A stretch of DNA of 64,000 nt from Acidobacteriota bacterium (GTDB lineage: Bacteria; Acidobacteriota; Terriglobia; Bryobacterales; Bryobacteraceae), in assembly GCA_029776225.1 (NCBI GenBank), contig JAKOTR010000004.1, positions 1 through 64,000 of the forward strand, given 5' to 3'. The notes under the pieces were generated by a model. That model saw nothing but the letters and a program-made list of their open reading frames with translations. It ran no database searches and was not told where the DNA came from. Positions 2,339 to 56,038 of this stretch are shown in pieces. Both the position numbers and the translations under genes were made by a program. The stretch's first letter is position 1. Each line of letters starts with the position of its first letter.

Positions 2339-3949
2339 ATGCCAGATAAAGTCATCCTAGTAGCAAGCGGAGATCTGCGGCCATCGGCTAACCTGACGTG
2401 CTGGGAAGCCCAGAAGCGCGTTGAAGAGTGCGTCATGGCCGCAATCCGGCGCGAAGGCCGCGAGGTCGAACGCGGCCATCCGTACGACCCCGTCAAAGGC
2501 CATGGATTTATCGACAGCCAGAAGTACGGCATCGAGGTGTTCCGCCGCATTCCACCGGAGGCGCCGCTGGTCGTGGTCGAAGCAGTCTGGCAGTACAGCC
2601 AGCATGTGTTGCCCGGCCTGATCACCCATCGCGGGCCGATTCTCACCGTGGCGAACTGGAACGGCCAGTACCCCGGACTGGTGGGTCTGCTGAACCTGAA
2701 CGCCTCGCTGACCAAGGCGGGCGTGAAGTACAGCAGCCTGTGGAGCGCCGATTTCAGCGACGAGTTCTTCCTCAGCGGGCTGCGGCGCTGGCTGAACGGC
2801 GAAACCATCGTTCACGACGCAAGCCATGTCCGGAGCCTGCGCGATGTGAAATTGCCGGAGCAGGCGGCGAAGATCGGCGGCGAGGTGGCCAGTAACCTGA
2901 TCAAGAACAAGGCCATCATGGGCATCTTCGACGAAGGCTGCATGGGGATGTACAACGCAATCATTCCAGACGAATTGTTGCATCCCATCGGTGTGTTCAA
3001 AGAGCGGCTCAGCCAGTCGGCGCTGTTCGCGGCCATGCAGCGCGTCCCCGACGACGAAGCACGCGCCGTCCGGCAGTGGCTCGACGCCAAGGGCATGCGC
3101 TTCCTCACCGGCCCGAACCCGGAAACCGACCTCACCGACGACCAGATCCTTGAGCAGTGCAAGATGTACATAGCCGCGGTCCGCATCGCCGACGAGTTCG
3201 GCTGCGACGTCATCGGCATCCAGTATCAGCAGGGCTTGAAGGACCTGGCGCCCGCCTCGGACTTGGTCGAAGGGCTGCTGAACAACACCGACCGGCCGCC
3301 GGTTAAAGACCCGAAGACGGGGCGCGTGCTGTTCGAAGGCGAGCCTGTGCCGCACTTTAATGAAGTGGATGAGTGCGCGGGTCTCGATGCGCTGGTGACG
3401 AACCGTATCTGGCGGAAACTCGGCTTCGACCCCGAGACCACCCTTCACGACGTCCGCTACGGCGAGCCCTATCGCTGGAATGGGAAAGAGGAATTCGTCT
3501 GGGTGTTCGAAATCTCCGGCGCGGTTCCGCCGCAGCACCTGATCGGCGGTTATCGCGGCGCGGTCAGCCACCGCCAGCCGCCGATGTTCTTCCCGAAGGG
3601 CGGCGGAACGCTCAACGGCGTCAGCAAGCCCGGAGAGATCGTCTGGAGCCGGATCTTCGTGGAGGAGGGCCGGTTGAAGGCAGACCTCGGGCGCGCCAAA
3701 GTGGTCGAATTGCCCACGGAGGAGACACAGCGCCGCTGGAACGCCACCAACCCCGAATGGCCCATCATGCACGCAGTCACCTACGGCATCACCCGCGACC
3801 AGTTCATGGGGCGCCACAAGTCGAACCACATCCAGGTGGCTTACGGGCCGGATGCCCAGGGCGCGAACCTGGCGCTCGCGGCCAAGGCGGCAGCGTTCAG
3901 GGACCTGGGAATCGAAGTCAGCATCTGCGGCACTGAGACCGGGCTGTAG
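2339..3949 (+). CDS. L-fucose isomerase-like sugar isomerase
   Basis: A 536-residue cytoplasmic protein resembling the FucI/AraA-fold ketol isomerases. Matching blocks include WNGQYPGLVGLLNLNASL, FDEGCMGMYNAIIPDELL (with the acidic metal-ligand region) and, near the C terminus, GRHKSNHIQVAYG. The length is close to the ~590 residues of classical FucI. These enzymes interconvert aldose and ketose sugars such as fucose and fuculose using Mn2+. The annotated start ATG lacks a clear Shine-Dalgarno, and a CACAAT -10-like element lies only 6 bp upstream, so a leaderless message is possible (inference). The substrate is not proven; it may feed the aldolase at 8.0 kb. Confidence 0.7.
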   Translation: MPDKVILVASGDLRPSANLTCWEAQKRVEECVMAAIRREGREVERGHPYDPVKGHGFIDSQKYGIEVFRRIPPEAPLVVVEAVWQYSQHVLPGLITHRGPILTVANWNGQYPGLVGLLNLNASLTKAGVKYSSLWSADFSDEFFLSGLRRWLNGETIVHDASHVRSLRDVKLPEQAAKIGGEVASNLIKNKAIMGIFDEGCMGMYNAIIPDELLHPIGVFKERLSQSALFAAMQRVPDDEARAVRQWLDAKGMRFLTGPNPETDLTDDQILEQCKMYIAAVRIADEFGCDVIGIQYQQGLKDLAPASDLVEGLLNNTDRPPVKDPKTGRVLFEGEPVPHFNEVDECAGLDALVTNRIWRKLGFDPETTLHDVRYGEPYRWNGKEEFVWVFEISGAVPPQHLIGGYRGAVSHRQPPMFFPKGGGTLNGVSKPGEIVWSRIFVEEGRLKADLGRAKVVELPTEETQRRWNATNPEWPIMHAVTYGITRDQFMGRHKSNHIQVAYGPDAQGANLALAAKAAAFRDLGIEVSICGTETGL

Positions 3950-3963
3950 GTCTGTGCCGCTTC

Positions 3964-5346
3964 CTATCGCGGCAGCGCGAGCGCGCCGCTCCAGACTTCG
4001 AAGGGGCGGCCGCCGCGCTCGTCGTCTTTATAGAGCGCCAGGTAGGTCATTACCCAGTGCTGCGTAAACGCCTCATCCGCCGGCTTGGCGCGCGCCAGCT
4101 CGTGGACCACGCGCCAGGTGCCCGTGTTCAGGTAGTGCTGTTGGAAGCTTCTCCCCTCCCGCGCTTTGAGAGGCACGACCGCCTGGCTGTGGGTATGTCC
4201 GTATACGATCGTCTGCGCCCACTTGGCAGCTTCTTCCTTCAGTGCATCGCGATAAGACGGCCGCCCGTCGCCTCCATCGGTGCGCTTGCTCAGCCAGCTT
4301 GAAAAGCTGCTGAGCCTCTTGAGCGATACTCCCCGCGAGAACTTCAGCGCCAGCGCCAGCTTCTTCAGCGTCCCCGGAGGAAGAAACGCGCTTCGCGCGC
4401 GGACGAAATCCAGTTTCAGAAAGTCTTGCACCAGTTCATCCCAAATCGCTTTCACCCTGGCCGCGGTTGCCTCATCCGGGCAGGTGCGCCGCAGCAGACC
4501 GTTCACCCACACCGGGATCAGCAGCAATGGCCGGACGTAGTCTATCTGGCGCAACCCTTCCACGCAGGCGGCCGGGAGCCGGCTGCCCAACTCCGCATTC
4601 ACGGTGGCCGCAAAGCGGTTCACCAGGTCCACCACGATCGCGTCGCCGATCGAGGAGGCGTTCCGATCCGCCTCGCAGTTCAGCGGATCGAACCTGTCGC
4701 CGTGGCGGAACCAGGCGCGATGCTGCTCGCAAAGCGACATGAGCTGCGGCGATTCCTCTGGACCGTGCGGGAACGGGCGGCAGGGCGAATTCGCCAGACA
4801 CATCGCCGAGACGATCCGTTCCCGGATGGCGTTGTACGCCTCGCCGGGCAGGTGCAGAAACCAATCGTGATTGCCGGCCACGTAATGCGTTCTGACCCTG
4901 AGCGGCACGCGGTCCCGCGACGCGAAGTCGCGCGACACTTTGGCGACGCCTCCGCTCGCCGTCGCCGGCGGCAACGTCATCACCTCACGCGAGTCGCTCA
5001 GACTGCGAAGCACCTCCAGCGACGGGCCGTTCGCCTCCAGAATCGAGTCGGTGATCTGCCTCACCTTTTCTTGAAACGCGGGGCTTGCCGGGTCCGACCA
5101 GGGACGCACGTACTCCGGATCCCGCGGCGAAACGCAGGGCCACAGCTCGGAGCGTATGAAGTCCAGAATGTCGCCGAGCAGCACCAGGTCCAGCTCTTCG
5201 ATGGGACGGTAGGTTCCGTCCCTGCGCCAAGAGGCGTCATAGGCCATGTCCCGCAGCCGCTCGCGGAAGACGCGAAAGGCAGTCGCCGGAATCGTCCCGC
5301 TGAAGGCGTTGTCGGAAAGATGAAGATCGCTGATGATGACGAGCAT
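3964..5346 (-). CDS. metallophosphoesterase family protein
   Basis: About 460 residues with the calcineurin-like phosphoesterase motifs in order: IISDLHLSD at the N terminus, LVLLGDILDF, HYVAGNHDWFLH and, late, IVYGHTHSQAVV. These supply the D-x-H, GD, GNHD and GH-x-H metal ligands of a dinuclear phosphatase. I chose the ATG at 5346 (MLVIISDLHL) because the family fold begins here. An upstream in-frame ATG at 5424 would add 26 unrelated residues reaching into the promoter of the divergent isomerase. The long insert between the GNHD and GHTH motifs is unassigned. The gene is convergent with the fucose-isomerase-like gene, 14 bp apart. Confidence 0.8.
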   Translation of the reverse strand: MLVIISDLHLSDNAFSGTIPATAFRVFRERLRDMAYDASWRRDGTYRPIEELDLVLLGDILDFIRSELWPCVSPRDPEYVRPWSDPASPAFQEKVRQITDSILEANGPSLEVLRSLSDSREVMTLPPATASGGVAKVSRDFASRDRVPLRVRTHYVAGNHDWFLHLPGEAYNAIRERIVSAMCLANSPCRPFPHGPEESPQLMSLCEQHRAWFRHGDRFDPLNCEADRNASSIGDAIVVDLVNRFAATVNAELGSRLPAACVEGLRQIDYVRPLLLIPVWVNGLLRRTCPDEATAARVKAIWDELVQDFLKLDFVRARSAFLPPGTLKKLALALKFSRGVSLKRLSSFSSWLSKRTDGGDGRPSYRDALKEEAAKWAQTIVYGHTHSQAVVPLKAREGRSFQQHYLNTGTWRVVHELARAKPADEAFTQHWVMTYLALYKDDERGGRPFEVWSGALALPR

Positions 5347-5455
5347 GCCTTGATCCGCAGAGCATACGATGTGCTTTGCCGGTGCGTCAACAGATCCGCA
5401 CTTTGCTATTCTGTTCACTGGCATTTAAATCCGGCACAAGGAGGAACATTAACCG

Positions 5456-6415
5456 GTGAGAGTCGGCGTTTTTACCGCATTGTTGGCTGATCTGCCGCTG
5501 GACAAGGTGCTGGCGAAGCTGAAGGCCATGGGCGTGGACACGGTGGAGCTGGGAACCGGCAACTATCCGGGCGACCCGCACTGCAAGCTCTCCATGCTGA
5601 ACGACCCCAAGGCGCTCGAGGAGTTCAAGAAGAAACTCGACGACAACGGCTTTACGATCAGCGCCCTGAGCTGTCACGGCGAGCCGCTGCATCCCAATCC
5701 GGAGATCGCGCGCAAGCACCAGGACGTCAACTGCCAGACGATTCTGCTGGCTGAGAAACTCGGCGTTCCCGTGGTCATTGATTTCTCCGGCTGCCCCGGC
5801 GACAACGAAGACGCCAAGTTTCCGAACTGGGTCACCTGCGCCTGGCCTCCGCACTTCCAGGACATCCTGAACTGGCAGTGGGAGAAGAAGGTGATCCCGT
5901 ACTGGAAGGAGCGAGCGAAGTTTGCCGCCGATCACGGCGTGAAGATCGCGCTTGAGATGCACCCCGGCTTCGTCGTCTACAACCCGGAGACGATGCTCAG
6001 ACTGCGCGACGCCGCCGGCCCGAGCATCGGCTGCAACTTCGACCCGAGCCACCTGTTCTGGCAAGGCATCGATCCCATCGCCGCTGTCCGCGTGCTCGGC
6101 GACTGCATCTTCCACGTCCATGCCAAGGATACGCAGTTGTATCCCTACAACCTTCCCAAGTGCGGCGTGCTCGACACCAAGAAGTACACCGACGAGCGCA
6201 ACCGGAGCTGGATCTTCCGCACCGTCGGCTATGGTCACGGCGCCGAGTGGTGGGGCGAGTTCATCTCCACGCTGAGAATGTACGGCTACGACTACGTGCT
6301 GTCGATGGAGCACGAGGACAGCCTGATGTCGCCGGAAGAAGGTTTGGCCAAGGGCGTGGCCTTCCTCCAGAACCTTGTAATCAAGGAAAAGCCGGGCGTC
6401 GCCTATTGGGCATAG
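5456..6415 (+). CDS. sugar phosphate isomerase/epimerase (xylose isomerase-like TIM barrel)
   Basis: A 319-residue AP-endonuclease-2/xylose-isomerase-like TIM barrel. Visible blocks are VDTVELGTGNYPGD, ISALSCHGEPLHPN, ALEMHPGFVVYNPETML, GCNFDPSHLFWQG and IFHVHAKDT. These carry the Glu, His and Asp metal ligands typical of sugar isomerases and inosose-type epimerases. The start is GTG, supported by a strong Shine-Dalgarno AAGGAGGAA at 5438-5446. There is no signal peptide. The substrate is unknown. A strong hairpin follows at 6441-6468. Confidence 0.83.
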   Translation: MRVGVFTALLADLPLDKVLAKLKAMGVDTVELGTGNYPGDPHCKLSMLNDPKALEEFKKKLDDNGFTISALSCHGEPLHPNPEIARKHQDVNCQTILLAEKLGVPVVIDFSGCPGDNEDAKFPNWVTCAWPPHFQDILNWQWEKKVIPYWKERAKFAADHGVKIALEMHPGFVVYNPETMLRLRDAAGPSIGCNFDPSHLFWQGIDPIAAVRVLGDCIFHVHAKDTQLYPYNLPKCGVLDTKKYTDERNRSWIFRTVGYGHGAEWWGEFISTLRMYGYDYVLSMEHEDSLMSPEEGLAKGVAFLQNLVIKEKPGVAYWA

Positions 6416-6440
6416 GGCGCCGGCAATGCCAGAAACAGGC

Positions 6441-6468
6441 GGCGGACCGGGCACATGCCCGGTCCGCC
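6441..6468 (+). terminator. strong 12-bp stem-loop downstream of the sugar isomerase
   Basis: GGCGGACCGGGC (6441-6452) and GCCCGGTCCGCC (6457-6468) form a perfect 12-bp stem with a 4-nt loop, 26 bp after the stop codon. It is followed by CTTGC rather than a run of T, so it may be a weakly intrinsic terminator or an mRNA-stabilising hairpin. Confidence 0.55.
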
Positions 6469-46239: not shown

Positions 46240-47232
46240 CTACTGTGCCGATCCTGCTTCGGCCTTCAGAAACGCGTCGACGTTGTTCTTGTCGATGAGC
46301 GTCGCGCCGGTGTCAACGAAACTCGGCAGCGGCGACCGCGTGTCCTGCGCCCAGTTGAGCGTGAGTGAGGGGGGCTTGTAGTGGTTCAACTGGTCAAGAA
46401 CCTGAAGGCCGAAGAACGCCATGGTGTACGGCTTCTGAGCAATCGTGGCATGGATCACGCCCTTCTGGATCATCTCCAGCGTTCGCGGATCGGTGTCCAT
46501 GGCGACGACCGTCTTGCCTTTCACCTGCCTGCGGGTCAGCACCTCGGCCACTTCGGGGCACGCCAGGGCCTCCAGGCAGACGAACGCATCCACCGGCGCG
46601 TTCTTCTCCACCAGCTCCATGGTCTTGTCGAACGCGACAGTCGGATCGCCCTTGATGTCCACGACTTCCGTGATTTTGATCCCGGGATGGCCGCGGAACA
46701 CCTGCTCGTAGCCGTTCAGCCGCTCCTTCAGGTTCGGCTGCTCGGGCATCGTGAACACAATGACGTTGCCTTTGCCCTTCAGTTGCTCGGCGACAATCCT
46801 GGCGCCCATCAACCCGGCCTCGTAGTTGTTCGTGCCGATGAACAGAAGGCGCTTGCTCTTCGGCGCATCGGAATCAATCGTGATAACCGGAACACCCCGC
46901 TCAATCGCGGCATCGATTTCCGGAGCCATGACGGCGGGATCGCCCACCGACACCATAATGCCCGAGGGATTTTTGCTCAGGGCTTTCTGAAACTCCGCCT
47001 TCTGGGCCTGGACATCGTAAGTCTCCGGCCCGACCATTTCCCACTTCACCTGGTACTGGGTTGCGGCGTCCTGGAAGCCGGCCAGCGCGGCTCGCCAGTA
47101 CGGAATCTTCGAGTTAAGGGTCACCAGATAATAAATTTCAGAAGGATCGTGCCGGGACCCGCCGCAGCTCAGCAGAGACGTCGCAAGCGCCCCGGCCACA
47201 ATGAATCGGAGCATGACTTTCGATCTGGACAT
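46240..47232 (-). CDS. sugar ABC transporter substrate-binding lipoprotein (RbsB-like), orphan
   Basis: A 330-residue periplasmic-binding protein of the Peripla_BP_4 (LacI/RbsB) fold. The lipoprotein signal ends LATSLLSCGGS with Cys23. Ligand-fold blocks include KIPYWRAALAGFQDAATQY, VPVITIDSDAPKSKR, NNYEAGLMGARI and FVCLEALACPEVAEVL. These proteins deliver pentoses or other sugars to an ABC importer. No permease or ATPase of that class is in the window, so it works with distant genes or as a sensor. Confidence 0.87.
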   Translation of the reverse strand: MSRSKVMLRFIVAGALATSLLSCGGSRHDPSEIYYLVTLNSKIPYWRAALAGFQDAATQYQVKWEMVGPETYDVQAQKAEFQKALSKNPSGIMVSVGDPAVMAPEIDAAIERGVPVITIDSDAPKSKRLLFIGTNNYEAGLMGARIVAEQLKGKGNVIVFTMPEQPNLKERLNGYEQVFRGHPGIKITEVVDIKGDPTVAFDKTMELVEKNAPVDAFVCLEALACPEVAEVLTRRQVKGKTVVAMDTDPRTLEMIQKGVIHATIAQKPYTMAFFGLQVLDQLNHYKPPSLTLNWAQDTRSPLPSFVDTGATLIDKNNVDAFLKAEAGSAQ

Positions 47233-49218: not shown

Positions 49219-49776
49219 CTACTTCGCGCAATCCATAAAGTAATAAGCGATCATGTGGCAGACGATCATGTGCGCGTCCTCGATCCTGCCCATGTGCGGC
49301 TCGCTCACCTGAATGTTGAGTTGCGCCAGGCGGCCCAGCTTGCCCCCGTCCCGCCCCGTGAGCGCCAGCGTCCGGCAGCCCGCCTCGTTTCCATACTCGA
49401 TGGCCCGCACTACGTTCGCCGAGTTGCCCGACCCGCTGATCCCCATTACCAGGTCACCCGGCTCCGCAAAATTCCTGAGCTGTTCGACGAACACGCACTC
49501 ATAGCTCACGTCGTTGGAGTAGGCGGTGAGCGTCGGCATGGAATCGGTTAGCGCCAGAATGCGAAACCGCGCATCGCGCCCGTAACTGGCGCCCTTCACG
49601 AGGTCGGTGGCGAAGTGGGATGCCGTCGCCGCGCTGCCGCCATTGCCGCACACAAAGATGTTCTTTCCGGCGTCCCGGGCCTCCCGGAACCAATCGATGG
49701 CCTGGGAAACCAGCCTCAGGTCTATGGTGTCGATCGTCTTCCGCAGTTCCGCCACGTACAACTCGGGAAAACTCAC
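49219..49776 (-). CDS. GmhA-like SIS-domain sugar-phosphate isomerase
   Basis: About 185 residues with the SIS phosphosugar site (CGNGGSAATASHF, GISGSGNSANVV). It resembles sedoheptulose-7-phosphate isomerase GmhA, the first step to ADP-heptose. Two metal-site residues differ from E. coli GmhA: Asp58 replaces Glu65 and Glu166 replaces Gln172, while His54 and His174 are kept with exact spacing. The start GTG 49776 overlaps the ROK gene stop (GTGA) and follows GGAGGAAG. It is the last gene of a five-gene coupled operon. Confidence 0.85.
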   Translation of the reverse strand: MSFPELYVAELRKTIDTIDLRLVSQAIDWFREARDAGKNIFVCGNGGSAATASHFATDLVKGASYGRDARFRILALTDSMPTLTAYSNDVSYECVFVEQLRNFAEPGDLVMGISGSGNSANVVRAIEYGNEAGCRTLALTGRDGGKLGRLAQLNIQVSEPHMGRIEDAHMIVCHMIAYYFMDCAK

Positions 49777-50639
49777 TCTTCCTCCTTCGCGCCGCCGCAC
49801 TTCGCCAGCGCCAGCGCTCCGTACAAGACACTGTCATCGCCCAGCGCCGCCTGAGTCACGTCGATGCGCGCCCGCGACCACGCCGTGATCTGCCGCCTCA
49901 GTTCTTCATTGAGCGGCCCGAACAGCGCCGCGCCGGCCTTGCTGATGCCGCCGCCGATGACAAGCCGCGCGGGATTCAGCAGCATGATGCAGGCTTTCAG
50001 TCCGAGCGCCAGGTCCACCACGTAGCGGCGTACAAACTCCGGATCGTACATCAGCTCGCGCGCCGAACGGCCGTGGTCGTGCTCCATCCAGATCCCCGCG
50101 CACATCCTTTCCAGGCAGCCCCGGGCGCCGCACAGGCACTCCGGGCCGCCCGGCCTCACGGTCAGATGGCCGATCTCGCCGGCATAGGAGTCCGCTCCGC
50201 GGTATATCCGGCCATCGACCACCAAACCGCCCCCGATCCCGGTCGAGAGCGTCATGTAAAACAGCGGGGAATACCCTTTGCCCGCCCCGTACACAGCCTC
50301 CCCGAGCGCGCCCACGTTCGCGTCATTGTCCATGACGGCGGGCAGCCCGAGGTTCGTCTCCACCCAGGCCGGCAGCGCGAAATCCTGCCATCCACCGACG
50401 TGCGTGGAAAGCGCTACGCGCTGGGCCGCAAAATCCACCGGCCCGCCGAAGCCTATGCCGCAGCGGTCAAGCGGCGCTTCCCTGCTCCACGCCTCCGCGA
50501 TCTCGCGGATTTGAGCCAGCATCCAGTCCCGGCCGCCCTCGCGGTTGGTGGAGCGCGATTCGCGCTTCACCATCCGGTCGCCCTCGAACACCGCCACACT
50601 GACCTTCGTGCCGCCGATGTCGATGGCCAGTATCCTCAC
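49773..50639 (-). CDS. ROK-family sugar kinase
   Basis: A 288-residue ROK protein without the DNA-binding domain, so a kinase. ATP motif IDIGGTKVSVAVFEG; sugar/catalytic region MDNDANVGALGEAVYGAG; zinc motif with CLCGARGCLERMCAG. ROK kinases phosphorylate hexoses such as glucose, N-acetylglucosamine or N-acetylmannosamine. Its ATG overlaps the stop of the upstream PfkB-type kinase by 4 bp (ATGA), and its TGA overlaps the next GTG. Confidence 0.88.
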   Translation of the reverse strand: MRILAIDIGGTKVSVAVFEGDRMVKRESRSTNREGGRDWMLAQIREIAEAWSREAPLDRCGIGFGGPVDFAAQRVALSTHVGGWQDFALPAWVETNLGLPAVMDNDANVGALGEAVYGAGKGYSPLFYMTLSTGIGGGLVVDGRIYRGADSYAGEIGHLTVRPGGPECLCGARGCLERMCAGIWMEHDHGRSARELMYDPEFVRRYVVDLALGLKACIMLLNPARLVIGGGISKAGAALFGPLNEELRRQITAWSRARIDVTQAALGDDSVLYGALALAKCGGAKEEE

Positions 50640-51619
50640 CGCTGCCTTGCCTCCGCTTGCAGCACTTCCTGCGGCGATGCCGTGCCCGTGCCCTTTTTCA
50701 TGATCGTGACCGACGCCACCAGATTGCCGATCCGCGCCGCTTCCACCGCCTGCCCGGTCACCGCAAGCGCCATCGCCGCCCCCGCGGTGAAGCTATCGCC
50801 GGCGCCGCAGATATCCACCGGATTCTCCACCGGACGGGTACGCACCGGCGTTTCGCGCCCGGGCTCGACGACCACTACGCCCTCCGGTCCCTGAGTGACG
50901 ATCATCAGACCCGCCTCCAGGTGCTCGCGCAGCGCCTGGTAGTCCACCTTCCCGAACAGCCGCATGCAAGCCTCGTCGGCCTCCTGCCGGTTCGGCTTCA
51001 CCACCACCCGGCGAAACTGCTCGATGCGCTTGCGCGAGTCCGCCCAGAACACTTTGTCCGGGTTGCGCGTCGCCAGGTCACTCAGCATCTGCCGCATCGC
51101 GGGCGTTACGACGCCGCCGCAGTCGGTCTCCGCCTGGTCCGCCACGATGATCACGCCGTAACCTCCGACGGCAGACTCCAGGCGCGTCAGAATTTTTCGC
51201 TCGGTCTCCTCCGGCAGGGGTTGTGCGTTGATGTAATCTACGCGCGGCTGGTCTTCCACACCCGTCTTTGCGTTGATCAGCTTCGTGTATGTGAACGTGG
51301 GGACGGGCGCCTTCACCAGGAACTCGGTTGAGATGCTCCGCGCCTCCAGCGCGCGCTGGAGCTCCTCCCCAAAACCGTCGTCGCCTACGACCCCCAACAC
51401 CGCCACCCTGTTCGCCTCGAGCGCAACCAGGTTGTTGGCGACCGTCCCGCCGGCGCCCGGCGTCACTTCGGTCGAGACCACAGCAATGCGCGGGATCCCC
51501 GTCTCGCGCGACGGTTCGGACAGCTCCGGATCGTACGTGCACCAGCGGTCAAGACAAATGTCCCCCACCACGAGCACTGCGAGCTTCGTGAATCCCGACA
51601 GAATCTGTTCGGTCGTCAT
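50636..51619 (-). CDS. HldA/RfaE1-like heptose-phosphate kinase (PfkB family)
   Basis: A 327-residue PfkB kinase closest in pattern to the kinase half of HldE: VVGDICLDRWCTYDPELSEPS, TPGAGGTVANNLVAL, VKPNRQEADEACMRLFG, and the catalytic DICGAGDSFTAGAAMAL. HldA phosphorylates D-glycero-beta-D-manno-heptose 7-phosphate at C1. There is no nucleotidyltransferase domain fused or nearby. It is in the middle of the five-gene operon with 4-bp overlaps on both sides. Confidence 0.83.
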   Translation of the reverse strand: MTTEQILSGFTKLAVLVVGDICLDRWCTYDPELSEPSRETGIPRIAVVSTEVTPGAGGTVANNLVALEANRVAVLGVVGDDGFGEELQRALEARSISTEFLVKAPVPTFTYTKLINAKTGVEDQPRVDYINAQPLPEETERKILTRLESAVGGYGVIIVADQAETDCGGVVTPAMRQMLSDLATRNPDKVFWADSRKRIEQFRRVVVKPNRQEADEACMRLFGKVDYQALREHLEAGLMIVTQGPEGVVVVEPGRETPVRTRPVENPVDICGAGDSFTAGAAMALAVTGQAVEAARIGNLVASVTIMKKGTGTASPQEVLQAEARQR

Positions 51620-52605
51620 GAGTTCTCTTCCGCCTCACACATCGCCGCGCAGACGGCCCGGCGCAGAGCCGGAAACGTGGCGCGGTGATCTCCCTGAAAG
51701 TAGAAGCTCGAACCACCGTCGGCCACCGTACGGACCAGGATCGTCTTATGCGGGCGGAAATAATAGCCCGCGTCCGTCTTCGGCAGTTCCCGCCGGAAAT
51801 CGCCCTGAATCGGGACCAGATCGAACACCGCCGTCGCGAAATTCCGGATGGCGCGCCCCTCCTGCCGCGCTACGTTGCGCGCCATGGCCAGCGCCTTCAG
51901 ATAGACTTCCGGCCCCATCACGGCGGAGCCGAAGTTCAACAGCACGCCGCCTTCGAGCCGCTCCACGGTGTTCGCGAAGATAAGAAAGTCGCGGTAGCTA
52001 GCCGCGCCCAGCGCCGCGCCGTCGCAGTTGGGATGCTCGTGGAGAATGTCGTAGCCGATGCCCACGTGTACCGTCGCCGGCACGGAAAGCCTCCATGCCG
52101 CGGCCAGCACGCTCAGGTCGCGATGCGGGAAATCGCTCATCTCGATGCGCCGCCCGATGTGCTCGCCCAGCCCGGCCTGTTCCCGGGCCGCCTCGACGAT
52201 CCAGTCGTTCAGCTCGCCCGTCTCCTGCCACAGCCCGAACTCCCCGGAAACGATGTACCGCGCCACGCTCTCGGTAGTCGCCCCGATACGCGCCAGTTCG
52301 TAATCGTGGATCGCTCCCGCGCCATTCATCGCGATGTGGCTGATGGCGCCGCGTTCCATCATGTCGATGATGTGGCGGTTCACGCCGGCGCGGAGCAGGT
52401 GCGCGCCCATCGTGAGAATTCGCGCCGCCCCCGTCTTCCTCGCTGCCACCAGGCGCCGGGCCACTTCCTCCAGGTCCGGGTGTGAGTAGGGAGGCGCGGG
52501 GTCGTCAAGCTTCAGCCAGTCATCCACGCAAAGAAGGCTTTCGCGTTCACCGAGCGGGCGGATCCTCAGCCGCGACCGGTCGAAAACAGTGTACTTGGAG
52601 CTCAT
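51616..52605 (-). CDS. conserved protein of unknown function in sugar-phosphate operon
   Basis: 329 residues from ATG 52605 (MSSKYTVFDRSRLRIRPL). I cannot assign it. It has striking conserved-looking blocks: RILTMGAHLLRAGVNRHIID, ISHIAMNGAGAIHDYELARI, GATTESVARYIVSGEFGLWQ, ILHEHPNCDGAALGAASYRD and ILVRTVADGGSSFYFQGDHR. The Gly/Asn-rich loop and repeated His/Asp suggest a Rossmann-like enzyme. A remote link to deoxyhypusine-synthase-like folds came to mind but I cannot support it. The ATG overlaps the HAD gene's TGA (TGATG); the stop overlaps the kinase start. It is likely an enzyme of the same pathway. Confidence 0.6.
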   Translation of the reverse strand: MSSKYTVFDRSRLRIRPLGERESLLCVDDWLKLDDPAPPYSHPDLEEVARRLVAARKTGAARILTMGAHLLRAGVNRHIIDMMERGAISHIAMNGAGAIHDYELARIGATTESVARYIVSGEFGLWQETGELNDWIVEAAREQAGLGEHIGRRIEMSDFPHRDLSVLAAAWRLSVPATVHVGIGYDILHEHPNCDGAALGAASYRDFLIFANTVERLEGGVLLNFGSAVMGPEVYLKALAMARNVARQEGRAIRNFATAVFDLVPIQGDFRRELPKTDAGYYFRPHKTILVRTVADGGSSFYFQGDHRATFPALRRAVCAAMCEAEENS

Positions 52606-53414
52606 CAGCAGAACAGAACGTTCATCAGTTCCTGGTGACACTCGTAGTTCGGGATGATGAAATCGGCGCCAACGCTGGTCAGCCGCTTTCGCTTCCACTC
52701 GTTCACCACGCGGCACTCCGGCTCATCCGTAGCCACACCAACGGCCACGCCGCCGACTTCCTTCACGTTTTCAATCTCGACATACCCGTCACCGAAACCG
52801 AGAAAGTTCGGCCCGTCGCATTCGGCCGACGCAATGATCTTCTGGATCAGGATTTTTTTCGAGAAGCTCTTGTAGTCGTCGAGCGCGCCGTAGACCCCGC
52901 CGTCAAAATACCGGCTCACGTCCAGCAGGTCCGCCTCTTCGCGCATGTACTGCTGGTCCGTGCCGCTTGCCAGGTACATCTTCAGACCGCGCTCTTTGAG
53001 CGCTTCGAGCAGGGGCCGCGCGCCCGGGACAAGGTATTTTTCCGGCGGAACTTGGCCTTTCCGCAGCTCTTCGAGCCGGTGGGCGATTCTTGCGTGCAGC
53101 AGCTCGAGGTATCTGTACTTGTATTGCAGCGGGTCGAGCGGTTTGCCGCCCCGCAGCTCCACCTGCCTCGCCAGCTCGATCATCTGGTAGATCGTCTGCT
53201 TGCCCGTCAGCCGCCCGACGAACTCCGTCACCAGCTCCCGAAGGTCCTCCTCGCGCTCGCCGGTCTTCAGATCCAGCAGAATCTCCACCATCATGGGGAT
53301 CATCACGTCGGTCCAGCCGGCGCGGATCAGTGAAAGGGTTCCGTCGAAATCAAAGAGGACTACCCGGGCGTTCCGGGCCGATACACCCGGGCGTACATGC
53401 TCAATCATCCTCAC
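52605..53414 (-). CDS. HAD-superfamily phosphatase
   Basis: A 269-residue HAD hydrolase. Motif I is VLFDFDGTLS, motif II lies in MYLASGTDQQYMREE, and motif IV is LGFGDGYVEIENVKEVGG. The helical cap between I and II (about 100 residues) is of the C1 type, larger than in GmhB. It probably dephosphorylates a small sugar phosphate. It is the first gene of the five-gene coupled operon. Confidence 0.85.
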   Translation of the reverse strand: MRMIEHVRPGVSARNARVVLFDFDGTLSLIRAGWTDVMIPMMVEILLDLKTGEREEDLRELVTEFVGRLTGKQTIYQMIELARQVELRGGKPLDPLQYKYRYLELLHARIAHRLEELRKGQVPPEKYLVPGARPLLEALKERGLKMYLASGTDQQYMREEADLLDVSRYFDGGVYGALDDYKSFSKKILIQKIIASAECDGPNFLGFGDGYVEIENVKEVGGVAVGVATDEPECRVVNEWKRKRLTSVGADFIIPNYECHQELMNVLFC

Positions 53415-53498: not shown

Positions 53499-54338
53499 CT
53501 AGATGTTCAGGTCGCGCAGAAACTGGTAGCTGGCCTTCATCGCTTCCAGATCCATTTCGACGTAGTAATTCTTCACCCCGCCCGTCCTGGCGGCTCGGAA
53601 CAGTCTTTTCCAGTCCACTACGCCCTGGCCCACCGGCACTTGTTTCTTCGTCTCCGCCGACCAGTCCGCCAGGTGCAGCGAGATAAAGCGGCCGGGATAC
53701 TTCTCCAGGTAGTCCGCGGCATGATACCCGGCACTGACCACAGCAACCTGGAACTGCATCTTCGCCACTTTCGGATCGAGCGTCTCAAGCAGCCGGTCAT
53801 AGATAAGCACTTCGTCGATCCGTGCGAACTCGGTATGGTGGTTATGAAACCCAGCCACCAGTCCCGCTTTCAGCGTCTTCTCGCCGATCTGGTTCAGATC
53901 CTCGGCCGCGCGCGTCCAATCCGACAGCGTCGCATTCCGCGGCAGGCCGAAGCTGGCGACGATCATCTGCTTGAGCCCCAGTTCCTTCGCGAAGGCGATG
54001 CGCTCGTCCAGATGCTCCTTGAGTTCCCGGAACTGGTAGTGGCAGCTTTCGCAGGTCAGGCCGGCGTCCTCGATGATGCGGCGCATCTCCCGCGCGGTCA
54101 ACTTCAGCAGAGACCCGAAGCCGGACCGCTCGTATCCGGGCGGCGAGCACAGTTCGATGGTGCGGTATCCGATCGAGGCGATTTGCCTCAGCGCGCCCGC
54201 AAAATCCTTGTCCACCATTTCCCTGACGGGGTAGGTCTGGCAGCCGATCGGCAATCCGAGTGGTGCGGCGCAAAGCGGTTTCAAGCCCGCGCCGGCCGCG
54301 CACAAGGCCGCGCCCACAAAACTCCTTCTCGTCATCAT
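53499..54338 (-). CDS. Tat-exported sugar phosphate isomerase/epimerase-like TIM barrel
   Basis: About 279 residues. The N terminus MMTRRSFVGAALCAAGAG is a twin-arginine signal. The TIM barrel follows with TIELCSPPGYERSG, ESCHYQFRELKEHLDERI, GFHNHHTEFARI, AKMQFQVAVVSAGYH and FISLHLADWSAE, giving the expected His/Asp/Glu metal ligands. It lies 40 bp downstream of a Tat-exported Gfo/Idh/MocA oxidoreductase, a pairing common in Acidobacteriota and Planctomycetes. The substrate is unknown. Confidence 0.83.
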   Translation of the reverse strand: MMTRRSFVGAALCAAGAGLKPLCAAPLGLPIGCQTYPVREMVDKDFAGALRQIASIGYRTIELCSPPGYERSGFGSLLKLTAREMRRIIEDAGLTCESCHYQFRELKEHLDERIAFAKELGLKQMIVASFGLPRNATLSDWTRAAEDLNQIGEKTLKAGLVAGFHNHHTEFARIDEVLIYDRLLETLDPKVAKMQFQVAVVSAGYHAADYLEKYPGRFISLHLADWSAETKKQVPVGQGVVDWKRLFRAARTGGVKNYYVEMDLEAMKASYQFLRDLNI

Positions 54339-54378
54339 CGCTATGTCTCCTTTGCCTCCTTCCCTGGACGCCGGAAGA

Positions 54379-55905
54379 TCAAATGGTCTGGGGATCCCAT
54401 CCTTTGCGGTACTCGCGGGAGAGATACCGGTTCGCTTCGCTAACGTTGGTGATCGAGACGCTCGCCGCGTCGAAGACCAGCCTCTTGCCGGTGCGCAGCG
54501 CGACAGCGTAAAGATTGGCGGCATCTGAGATCGGGCCTGCATGGAGGAAAGAACCTTCGGATTGCCTGCCGCTGCCTCGGCACGCTTCGATCCACGCGCG
54601 CATGCCCGCCGATTGCCTCCCGGCCTCCCTTCGCCTGCCCTCGCTGCGCGGCTCCGGCGCCTGATAGGTCCTGATGAGTTTTTCCGGTATGAGCCGCGGA
54701 TTTTCCACCCGGAAGCCCGCCAGGATCTTGCCCTTGTCGCCGGTGAACATCATGCCCTCCGCCGGCAGTTCCTTTCCTTCCTCCAAAAGCTCTTCCGGGG
54801 TGGGCGGGCGCATGCCGCCTTCATACCAGATCAAGTCGATGGCCGGCCTGTCTCCGCGTGCGGGGTACTTGAAACGTACAATACTGGCGTCGGGGAACGA
54901 GTAATCGTTCTTAATCGTGGTGGAAACGCCGTCCTTCAGCATGCAGTGATGGCTCAGCATGGGTTCGACGATGGTCGGCGCGTCCAGTTCAAGCGCCCGG
55001 AAAACGGTCCACAGGCTGTAGTGGCCCATATCGGCCATGGAGCCGCCGCCGAAATCGTACCATCCGCGGAAGACCATGTGCGTGTAGTGCGGATGATAGG
55101 GACGGTCGGCCTCGGGCCCCAGCCACAGGTTCCAGTCAAACCCCTTCGGCACAGGAGGCCTGTCGGTGGGAATGGTTGGATATTGCGGCCACACCGGACG
55201 GTTCGTCCAGTTGTGGACTTCGCGCAGCGTGCCGATGGCGCCGTCTTTGATCCACGCCATCACCTGTTCCATGGAACCGTTGCTGTCCCAAGGCAAAAAA
55301 TGCGTGGCGACGCCTCGCTCGCGCGCCGTATCGATCACCATCCGGGCTTCCTTGAGGCGGTTCGCAATCGGCTTGTGCAGGATGACGTGCTTGCCCCTCT
55401 TCATCGCCGCGATGCTGATGACCCCGTGAAGGTGGTCCGGCGTCATGATCTTCACCGCGTCGAGGTCTTTTTCTTTCTCGAGCATCTCGCGGAAATCCGC
55501 GTACGCCGAACAGCCTTTGTATCGCTCCGCCGAACGCGCGTTGGCGTAATACGTCTCGACGATCTCCTTGCCGACGTCGCGGCCCCCGGGGATGTTGCCT
55601 TCCGCGCCGGCTTTCCAGTCAGGCTTCCCTAACGCTTTGCGAATGCTGTTCACGAGGCCATCGCGGGACCAGTCGCGATACCCCACGGCGTACTTGCTGG
55701 GATCGCAGACCGAAACGACCTGAATTTCGGGAACGGGAAGCAGGGCGAGCAGTCTCCGCAGTCCCTCGGTCCCAACTCCGATGTAGCCCAGGGTGATCTT
55801 GTCGCTGGGAGGCACGAACGCCGGCCCTCCTAATACGTGTCTTGGGACGATCGTAAACGCAGCGGCGGCGCCCAGAAATTGGCGGCGGTTCTTCTCGGAT
55901 GTCAT
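54379..55905 (-). CDS. Gfo/Idh/MocA-family oxidoreductase with Tat-type signal
   Basis: About 508 residues; longer than cytoplasmic members. The twin-arginine signal is EKNRRQFLGAAAAFTIVP. NAD-binding ITLGYIGVGTEGLRRLL, lysine motif HVILHKPIANRLKEA (EKP replaced by HKP), and ADMGHYSLWTVFRAL follow. The EKP glutamate is missing, but the Lys that contacts substrate is kept. ATG 55905 follows GAGGTAGG. It is co-transcribed with the downstream sugar isomerase. Confidence 0.84.
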   Translation of the reverse strand: MTSEKNRRQFLGAAAAFTIVPRHVLGGPAFVPPSDKITLGYIGVGTEGLRRLLALLPVPEIQVVSVCDPSKYAVGYRDWSRDGLVNSIRKALGKPDWKAGAEGNIPGGRDVGKEIVETYYANARSAERYKGCSAYADFREMLEKEKDLDAVKIMTPDHLHGVISIAAMKRGKHVILHKPIANRLKEARMVIDTARERGVATHFLPWDSNGSMEQVMAWIKDGAIGTLREVHNWTNRPVWPQYPTIPTDRPPVPKGFDWNLWLGPEADRPYHPHYTHMVFRGWYDFGGGSMADMGHYSLWTVFRALELDAPTIVEPMLSHHCMLKDGVSTTIKNDYSFPDASIVRFKYPARGDRPAIDLIWYEGGMRPPTPEELLEEGKELPAEGMMFTGDKGKILAGFRVENPRLIPEKLIRTYQAPEPRSEGRRREAGRQSAGMRAWIEACRGSGRQSEGSFLHAGPISDAANLYAVALRTGKRLVFDAASVSITNVSEANRYLSREYRKGWDPQTI

Positions 55906-55944
55906 GTGCCTACCTCGAAATGATCTGATTTGCTGCCGGTTGCG

Positions 55945-55950
55945 ATTATA
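55945..55950 (-). promoter_or_regulatory. -10 element upstream of the Tat oxidoreductase
   Basis: On the minus strand a TATAAT lies about 40 bp before the ATG at 55905. No clear -35 box is seen at the expected distance. Confidence 0.45.
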
Positions 55951-56038
55951 CACCTGGAGGGCGCGCGCCCGGACGCGCAAAAGGCGGGCACGAATCAGGT
56001 GGGACTTACTACTACTCTATGGAACGCGGGCGGCGGAC

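What the first reader, a model, noticed from the sequence alone, without database searches (positions are those of the whole stretch)
49219..53414. Five-gene fully coupled sugar-phosphate operon without a nucleotidyltransferase
HAD phosphatase, unknown enzyme, HldA-like kinase, ROK kinase and GmhA-like isomerase overlap by 1-4 bp at every junction (TGATG, ATGA, ATGA, GTGA). Isomerase, kinase and phosphatase mirror the ADP-heptose route, but the nucleotidyltransferase (HldC/HldE-C) and epimerase are missing, and two extra proteins are added. It may make a different phosphorylated or free sugar, a signalling heptose, or recycle cell-wall sugars.
Basis: partly seen in the sequence, partly recalled or inferred. 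Interest (0 to 1): 0.75.

Follow-up and report, generated by a model that had tools for sequence, protein, structure and literature searches.

The report
Conserved five-gene sugar-phosphate operon
A bacterium related to the Acidobacteriota carries a tightly packed five-gene operon whose core recurs in other phyla; it resembles the first steps of making the seven-carbon sugar of outer-membrane lipid, but its isomerase has a changed metal site and one gene is an enzyme of unknown job whose fold is otherwise known from polyamine and amino-acid chemistry.

Summary
In detail: five minus-strand genes at 49219-53414 overlap by 1-4 bases at every junction. Four of 80 named relatives have the same order; 37 of 80 have the HAD-GSU-PfkB core.

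The "unknown enzyme" is an NCBIfam GSU2086-family protein (383 bits, cut-off 250). Its model has the fold of deoxyhypusine synthase and ornithine cyclodeaminase.

The "missing" parts are partly elsewhere: an HldC-like nucleotidyltransferase and heptosyltransferase-type genes lie on other contigs; no HldD over cut-off, no GmhB. The window holds the only GmhA-like and the best HldA-like gene.

The isomerase is not canonical GmhA: zinc ligands H-E-Q-H read H-D-E-H. The D and E changes are in 33 of 33 SIS proteins from loci of the window's GSU2086 type; 13 of 13 others keep E and Q.

GSU2086 has two deep types. In the phylum, GSU2086 and HldD coexist in 3 of 396 genomes, against about 30 expected, relatedness uncorrected.

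Best reading: a heptose-like sugar-phosphate module with an unassigned, probably NAD-dependent, isomerase or epimerase. A catabolic role is the main rival. No substrate is shown.

The parts
52605..53414 (-). HAD phosphatase or phosphomutase with a C1-type cap; first gene, GTG start
   Evidence: PF00702 E 1.5e-13; the alignments of 20 and 19 keep FDFDGT, SGTD, one Lys (K186) and FGDG; model pLDDT 91.5, top Foldseek hits beta-phosphoglucomutases; no TIGR00213 (GmhB) match in the genome at E 1e-5
51616..52605 (-). GSU2086-family protein, type II: fold of deoxyhypusine synthase / LOR-SDH ornithine cyclodeaminase; probable NAD-dependent sugar-phosphate enzyme (inferred)
   Evidence: NF052581 383 bits, cut-off 250; model pLDDT 95, AgrE Z 19.8, DHS Z 15.8-18.6 in the rows shown; type II side of a branch with support 100
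50636..51619 (-). PfkB kinase nearest to the heptose-7-phosphate kinase domain HldA
   Evidence: TIGR02198 145 bits, below cut-off 345; best solved relative HldA 4e84, E 1.2e-13; strongest TIGR02198 match in the genome
49773..50639 (-). ROK-family sugar kinase
   Evidence: PF00480 E 6.4e-52; near GSU2086 in 10 of 80 related loci, so an optional member
49219..49776 (-). GmhA-like SIS isomerase with altered zinc-ligand set H-D-E-H
   Evidence: TIGR00441 122 bits, below cut-off 209; only gmhA match in the genome; motifs SHFATDL and RIEDAHMIVCH

Best explanation
The operon encodes a sugar-phosphate module that is a paralogue of the early ADP-heptose route. Inferred scheme: the SIS enzyme interconverts a ketose phosphate and an aldose phosphate (sedoheptulose 7-phosphate or a close analogue); the GSU2086 protein, using bound NAD in the redox-neutral way of its fold relatives, isomerises or epimerises the same sugar phosphate; the HldA-like PfkB kinase adds a phosphate, probably at C1; the HAD enzyme removes the other phosphate (taking the place of GmhB) or acts as a phosphomutase; ROK lets free sugar enter. 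In this genome the product most likely feeds the unlinked HldC-like nucleotidyltransferase and the GT9 transferases. Shown: gene order, families, predicted fold, co-occurrence, the altered zinc-ligand residues. Inferred: every substrate, NAD use, and the link to HldC.
For: The window's PfkB and SIS are the best HldA and the only GmhA candidates in the genome, which also has an HldC-like gene and GT9 genes. In G345, of the same class, homologues of PfkB and HAD are fused and followed by HldC and HldD. G024 and G050 have an HldC-HldD pair, the HAD-GSU-PfkB triad, only a weak gmhA match and no GmhB; G298 shows the same contents by family search, but its HldC-HldD region was not fetched. Of 40 type I GSU2086 rows, 10 have a SIS gene near and 2 have HldE plus SIS; L196 has PfkB-HldC-GT9-GSU-GT9. 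In Geobacter, transposon fitness values of GSU2085 hldE, GSU2086 and GSU2087 gmhA are -3.1, -3.2 and -3.7 (PMC5585712, one passage seen). 124 of 129 GSU2086 genomes have a GmhA-like gene, against 172 of 267 others.
Against: Two of the four zinc ligands differ in all 33 SIS proteins from type II loci, which suggests a substrate other than GmhA's. In 80 loci no GSU2086 gene has both HAD and a nucleotidyltransferase near (41, 15, both 0), so the HAD form may not lead to a nucleotide sugar. Of nine triad genomes tested for GmhB, four do have a match (G062, G156, G164, G242), so HAD need not be its substitute there. The PfkB~HAD fusion is in three genomes, and HldC was found beside it in only one. 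HldC-type genes are in 352 of 396 genomes of the phylum, so finding one here says little. Some relatives lie near sugar transporters and IolG/IolE-like genes. 15 of 80 loci have GSU2086 with none of the partners near. G187 and G289 have HAD and ROK without the rest. Geobacter fitness may include polar effects and concerns an HldE operon. The 80 loci were chosen by their GSU2086 gene, so its presence in all of them is no evidence.
Confidence: 0.42

Rival explanations
1. A catabolic or salvage route for an unknown sugar or polyol: imported sugar is phosphorylated by ROK or PfkB, isomerised by SIS, remodelled by GSU2086, and fed to central metabolism. The likeness to heptose enzymes is ancestry only.
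For: Named relatives have RbsB/RbsA-type transporter genes near HAD-GSU-PfkB: upstream with Gfo/Idh and TIM-barrel genes in L172 and L183, downstream in L191, on the other strand in L166. A Chloroflexota plasmid has SBP, ATPase, two permeases, deoC and two Gfo/Idh genes before HAD-GSU-PfkB-SIS. The Gfo/Idh and TIM proteins there score nearest to IolG and IolE, far below cut-off. The window has a TIM-barrel and a Gfo/Idh gene upstream and an RbsB-like gene 2 kb downstream. Altered SIS zinc ligands.
Against: The Gfo/TIM pair was not found in L130 or L131, two loci with the full five-gene order (L124 has only 1.4 kb upstream). Binding-protein or permease markers were found in 7 of 80 loci with the queries used (L141, L143, L166, L172, L181, L183, L191). 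A phosphatase paired with a kinase is odd in a catabolic route. Triad genomes G024, G050 and G298 carry HldD over cut-off and HldC matches of E about 1e-51.
Confidence: 0.28
2. The ordinary ADP-heptose pathway with scattered genes: SIS = GmhA, PfkB = HldA, HAD = a substitute GmhB, HldC elsewhere; GSU2086 and ROK are accessory and do not change the product.
For: HldC-like gene and GT9 genes in the genome; PfkB~HAD fusion followed by HldC-HldD in G345; no GmhB match in G000, G024, G050, G298 and G104.
Against: SIS lacks two of four GmhA zinc ligands. The GSU2086 type tracks the SIS type, which is not expected of an accessory gene. No HldD over cut-off. GmhB matches exist in four other triad genomes.
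Confidence: 0.18
3. HAD is a phosphomutase of the beta-phosphoglucomutase kind, primed by the bisphosphate that PfkB makes, so the module moves a phosphate to C1 without net loss.
For: C1-capped fold with beta-phosphoglucomutases as the top structural matches.
Against: C1-capped phosphatases, such as the alnumycin P phosphatase, score close behind; a fold match cannot tell a mutase from a phosphatase.
Confidence: 0.1

Closest known systems
Early ADP-heptose pathway (GmhA, HldA, GmhB, HldC, HldD)
   Same: Isomerase, PfkB kinase and HAD enzyme of matching superfamilies; HldC-like gene and GT9 genes in the same genome
   Different: GmhA zinc ligands not kept; HAD is C1-capped and no GmhB match; no HldD over cut-off; GSU2086 and ROK added; nucleotidyltransferase unlinked
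Geobacter sulfurreducens GSU2085-GSU2087 (hldE, GSU2086, gmhA)
   Same: GSU2086-family gene beside heptose kinase and isomerase genes; the three have similar fitness defects (PMC5585712, one passage seen)
   Different: Annotated hldE and gmhA there; no HAD or ROK in the passage seen; its GSU2086 was not typed here
AgrE/ArgZ C-terminal ornithine cyclodeaminase domain and LOR/SDH proteins
   Same: Fold (AgrE Z 19.8 over 219 residues), sequence similarity by profile (E 9.6e-6), HDxE motif
   Different: About 16% identity; stand-alone; sits with sugar-phosphate genes; substrate unknown
Deoxyhypusine synthase
   Same: Fold (Z 15.8-18.6 over 243-268 residues in the rows shown)
   Different: About 8-13% identity; profile match only E 0.14

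Membership tests
GmhA (sedoheptulose-7-phosphate isomerase) | Zinc ligands His, Glu, Gln, His (H64, E68, Q175, H183 in B. pseudomallei), said to be completely conserved in orthologues (PMC5705639, passages seen) | tested here: not met
   Window SIS has H, D, E, H; D and E are in 33 of 33 SIS from type II loci, E and Q in 13 of 13 others
GmhA (sedoheptulose-7-phosphate isomerase) | NCBIfam TIGR00441 cut-off 209.45 bits | tested here: not met
   122.4 bits; only 48 of 396 genomes of the phylum pass, so the cut-off is strict
HldA (heptose-7-phosphate kinase) | NCBIfam TIGR02198 cut-off 345 bits | tested here: not met
   145 bits, nearly full length
GmhB (heptose-1,7-bisphosphate phosphatase) | TIGR00213 match | tested here: not met
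   No match in G000 at E 1e-5; the HAD model is C1-capped, beta-phosphoglucomutase-like
HldC nucleotidyltransferase in the genome | TIGR02199 cut-off 181.5 bits | tested here: inconclusive
   180.6 bits at G000:C81:229326-229745, just under
HldD epimerase in the genome | TIGR02197 cut-off 274.6 bits | tested here: not met
   Best 142.6 bits among 13 matches
NCBIfam GSU2086 family (NF052581) | Cut-off 250 bits | tested here: met
   383.2 bits
Deoxyhypusine synthase / ornithine cyclodeaminase fold | Shared fold over the domain | tested here: met
   All 50 rows shown are AgrE/ArgZ, LOR/SDH or DHS, Z 15.8-19.8
Deoxyhypusine synthase / ornithine cyclodeaminase function | Bound NAD and the catalytic residues of the solved enzymes | not testable with these tools
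   No coordinates at hand; conserved H100, D101, E103, K237 and others are candidates only
ROK kinase | PF00480 above gathering score | tested here: met
   177.3 bits, cut-off 22.9

The most novel reading that the evidence does not exclude
GSU2086 proteins are NAD-dependent sugar-phosphate epimerases or isomerases, possibly the first carbohydrate enzymes of the deoxyhypusine-synthase/ornithine-cyclodeaminase fold. Type I works with canonical GmhA and takes the place of HldD by setting the sugar's stereochemistry before nucleotide activation; type II, the window's kind, does the same job for a related sugar made by the altered SIS enzyme.
Probability: 0.2. Interest if true: 0.85.

Novelty: new variant of a known kind. 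Interest (0 to 1): 0.57.

Why it matters
If right, a large uncharacterised family (over cut-off in 129 of 396 genomes of this phylum; relatives in several other phyla) gets a first testable role, and genomes with heptose isomerase and nucleotidyltransferase genes but no HldD may get an explanation. It would add sugar chemistry to a fold known from polyamine and amino-acid enzymes. Even if the sugar is not a heptose, the matched types of GSU2086 and SIS define a sugar-phosphate module that labels such as gmhA and hldA would mis-describe.

Tried and rejected
Considered and set aside. (1) 'No nucleotidyltransferase in the genome': rejected, HldC-like gene found. (2) Upstream TIM-barrel (53499-54542) and Gfo/Idh (54379-55980) genes as part of the operon: not found at L130 and L131 (L124 has too little upstream sequence to tell); left out, though strand and an 84-base gap would allow read-through. 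(3) Promoters and terminators: 1 promoter-like site against 1.4 expected, 7 terminator-like against 5.9; no information. (4) Phage records: no match. Plasmid records: two matches, both read. (5) Literature: searches gave one paper with a table row for GSU2086 and no functional description; the library lacks most subscription journals. Searches were for the GmhA zinc site. (6) HldD replacement as a settled claim: too strong, because 3 genomes carry both, 86 gmhA-bearing genomes carry neither, and relatedness was not corrected for. (7) 'GSU2086 is the constant member of the module': dropped, because the 80 loci were chosen by it; among the 14 genomes chosen by HAD it stands beside HAD in nine. 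(9) The 80 named loci are the best matches to the window protein, hence type II; they are no random sample, and some end at contig edges.

Full report
OBSERVATION. The five genes exist at the stated place, all on the minus strand: HAD 53414-52605, GSU2086-family 52605-51616, PfkB 51619-50636, ROK 50639-49773, SIS 49776-49219. The "unknown enzyme" has no Pfam match at E 0.01 but is a strong NF052581 'GSU2086 family protein' (383 bits, cut-off 250).

REST OF THE PATHWAY IN THIS GENOME (G000, 5.18 Mb, 97.7% complete). GmhA: one match, the window's own SIS. HldA domain: the window's PfkB is best at 144.6 bits; the next is 67.3. HldC: one near-cut-off match at C81:229326-229745, 180.6 bits, and one of 24.2 bits on C93. 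HldD: best 142.6 of 274.6. GmhB: none at E 1e-5. GT9 family: two strong matches on C93 (156 and 122 bits), three weaker ones over cut-off and two below it. So the nucleotidyltransferase is unlinked, not absent, and the window holds the only or best candidates for isomerase and kinase. HldC-type matches (E 1e-38) are in 352 of 396 genomes of the phylum, so this one alone is weak evidence.

WHERE.

CONSERVATION. Of 396 genomes of the phylum, 129 have GSU2086 over cut-off and 14 have a relative of the HAD at E 1e-20 or better. Of these 14, nine have GSU2086 and PfkB with it: G000, G024, G050, G062, G104, G156, G164, G242 and G298 (G298 also has a second, divergent locus with the order HAD-PfkB-GSU). 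Two of the window's own family (G187, G289) have HAD overlapping ROK without GSU2086 or PfkB. Three (G211, G320, G345) have PfkB and HAD fused. G062 has SIS and ROK just upstream, with a PfkA-type phosphofructokinase between. The loci include Acidobacteriota, Planctomycetota, Armatimonadota, Chloroflexota, Bacillota, Nitrospirota, Myxococcota, Pseudomonadota and Thermodesulfobacteriota. The exact five-gene order is in L124, L130, L131 and L172. There GSU/PfkB is -4 in all four, PfkB/ROK -4 in three and -7 in one, ROK/SIS -4 in three and +3 in one, HAD/GSU +10, +13, -11 and +20 by the nearest possible start codon.

TWO TYPES. Of type I rows 28 have no partner near, 10 have SIS and 2 have HldE plus SIS. 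Type II rows: HAD 51, nucleotidyltransferase 17, PfkB 8, SIS 1, none 15. A clade of 15 rows (support 99) has nucleotidyltransferase in 14; two Lachnospiraceae rows with nucleotidyltransferase lie inside a Clostridial clade of HAD rows (support 96), and L196 lies among Planctomycetota; so the partner seems to have switched more than once. The type is mirrored in the SIS protein. GmhA zinc ligands are H64, E68, Q175 and H183, completely conserved among orthologues (PMC5705639, passages seen); the gonococcal enzyme has the same site, and its E65 and H183 matter for LOS synthesis (PMC5387315, passages seen). Of 46 SIS proteins aligned, 33, all from loci with a type II GSU2086, have D for E and E for Q; three of the 33 also lack the first His and one the last. 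Thirteen keep E and Q: 12 from type I loci, and one (L141) beside a second GSU2086 gene on its contig. Spacings of four and eight residues fit the published numbering. GSU2086 keeps polar residues across both types (H69, N94, H100, D101, E103, E112, E128, H180, D186, H191, D206, E233, K237, D262, R284, R292, H307, each in over 93% of both) and differs by type at 113, 126, 235, 263, 288, 293 and 300; position 126 is Trp in 92 of 92 type II rows. This looks like one chemistry with a changed substrate (inference).

FOLD. The model of the window GSU2086 protein (pLDDT 95) matches AgrE/ArgZ (Z 19.8, 219 residues, 3.2 A), LOR/SDH and deoxyhypusine synthase (Z 15.8-18.6). A profile search finds AgrE/ArgZ at E 9.6e-6 and a deoxyhypusine synthase only at E 0.14. 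The genome's own LOR/SDH-type protein on C93 aligns with the family profile at 91% probability and shares HDxE. These relatives use bound NAD in redox-neutral reactions (established knowledge; one PDB title names an AgrE-ornithine-NAD complex). NAD binding by GSU2086 is inferred.

HEPTOSE LINK. In G345, of the same class, a PfkB~HAD fusion is followed by HldC and HldD; its HAD part is 34% identical to the window's. That genome has a second HldC-type match and two matches each for GmhB and gmhA, so the run may be one of two routes. The fusions in G211 and G320 had no HldC found beside them. Of nine triad genomes tested, GmhB matches are absent in G000, G024, G050, G104 and G298 and present in G062, G156, G164 and G242. 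G024 and G050 have an HldC-HldD pair elsewhere. G176 and G349 have GSU2086-HldE-SIS, with a GT9 gene next door in G349. L196 has PfkB-HldC-GT9-GSU-GT9. Solidesulfovibrio plasmid pDCAR1 has a nucleotidyltransferase-kinase fusion, GSU2086 and SIS beside sialic-acid-type genes. In Geobacter, hldE, GSU2086 and gmhA have fitness values -3.1, -3.2 and -3.7 on electrodes (PMC5585712, one passage seen).

HLDD. HldD over cut-off: 91 of 396; with GSU2086: 3 (G024, G050, G298, all with type II triads); expected 29.6; Fisher p 3e-14. Within the 296 gmhA-bearing genomes: both 3, GSU2086 only 121, HldD only 86, neither 86. In family f22, 15 have HldD only and 11 GSU2086 only, none both; in its genus g47, 13 and 2 (read from the listings). 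The p-values ignore relatedness. In the f22 stretches fetched, HldD and all but one of the GSU2086 genes (L078, with SIS) had none of the other queried heptose genes near, and whether the two genes occupy the same site was not compared; direct gene swapping is not shown.

CATABOLIC SIGNS. L172, L183, L191 and L166 and a Chloroflexota plasmid have sugar ABC transporter genes near HAD-GSU-PfkB, several with Gfo/Idh or TIM-barrel genes. Binding-protein or permease markers were found in 7 of 80 loci. This weighs against a purely envelope role and is one reason why confidence stays below one half.

VERDICT. A real, conserved module; not a canonical ADP-heptose operon by the tests made (GmhA ligands and score, HldA score, GmhB match); it works like its early steps in my best reading. 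The key unknown is what GSU2086 does.

Noticed in passing
L023 (G000:C93) 3537-6463: Two GT9 heptosyltransferase-type genes flank two short ORFs; the second (5074-5484) has only weak similarity to the HldC domain (24 bits) and seems to lack the usual nucleotidyl-transfer motif (recalled). Perhaps a decayed HldE.
   Followed up: partly
L003 9792-10751 (G000:C17): A type I GSU2086 paralogue with no heptose gene beside it, between genes that look like mtnA and a CAAX protease on one side and uvrA on the other (annotation by eye).
   Followed up: partly
L023 498-1733 (G000:C93): A LOR/SDH-type (ornithine cyclodeaminase-like) protein, the third and weakest GSU2086 relative in the genome.
   Followed up: partly
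L123 7215-10636 (G345): A PfkB~HAD fusion followed by HldC and HldD: a compact heptose run with a non-GmhB phosphatase domain.
   Followed up: partly
L086 5638-6921 (G062): A PfkA-type phosphofructokinase gene lies between SIS-ROK and HAD-GSU-PfkB.
   Followed up: no
L195 16921-18024 and 18175-19245; L206 4189-5957: Thiamine-dependent E1 or split-transketolase-like genes; the two L195 ORFs stand for clusters found in 5 and 11 of 88 loci (which loci was not listed; naming by eye), and L206 has an annotated transketolase pair.
   Followed up: no
window 46240-47232: An RbsB-like sugar-binding protein gene on the minus strand, 2 kb beyond the operon's end, past grpE- and dnaJ-like genes on the other strand (the last two by eye).
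   Followed up: no
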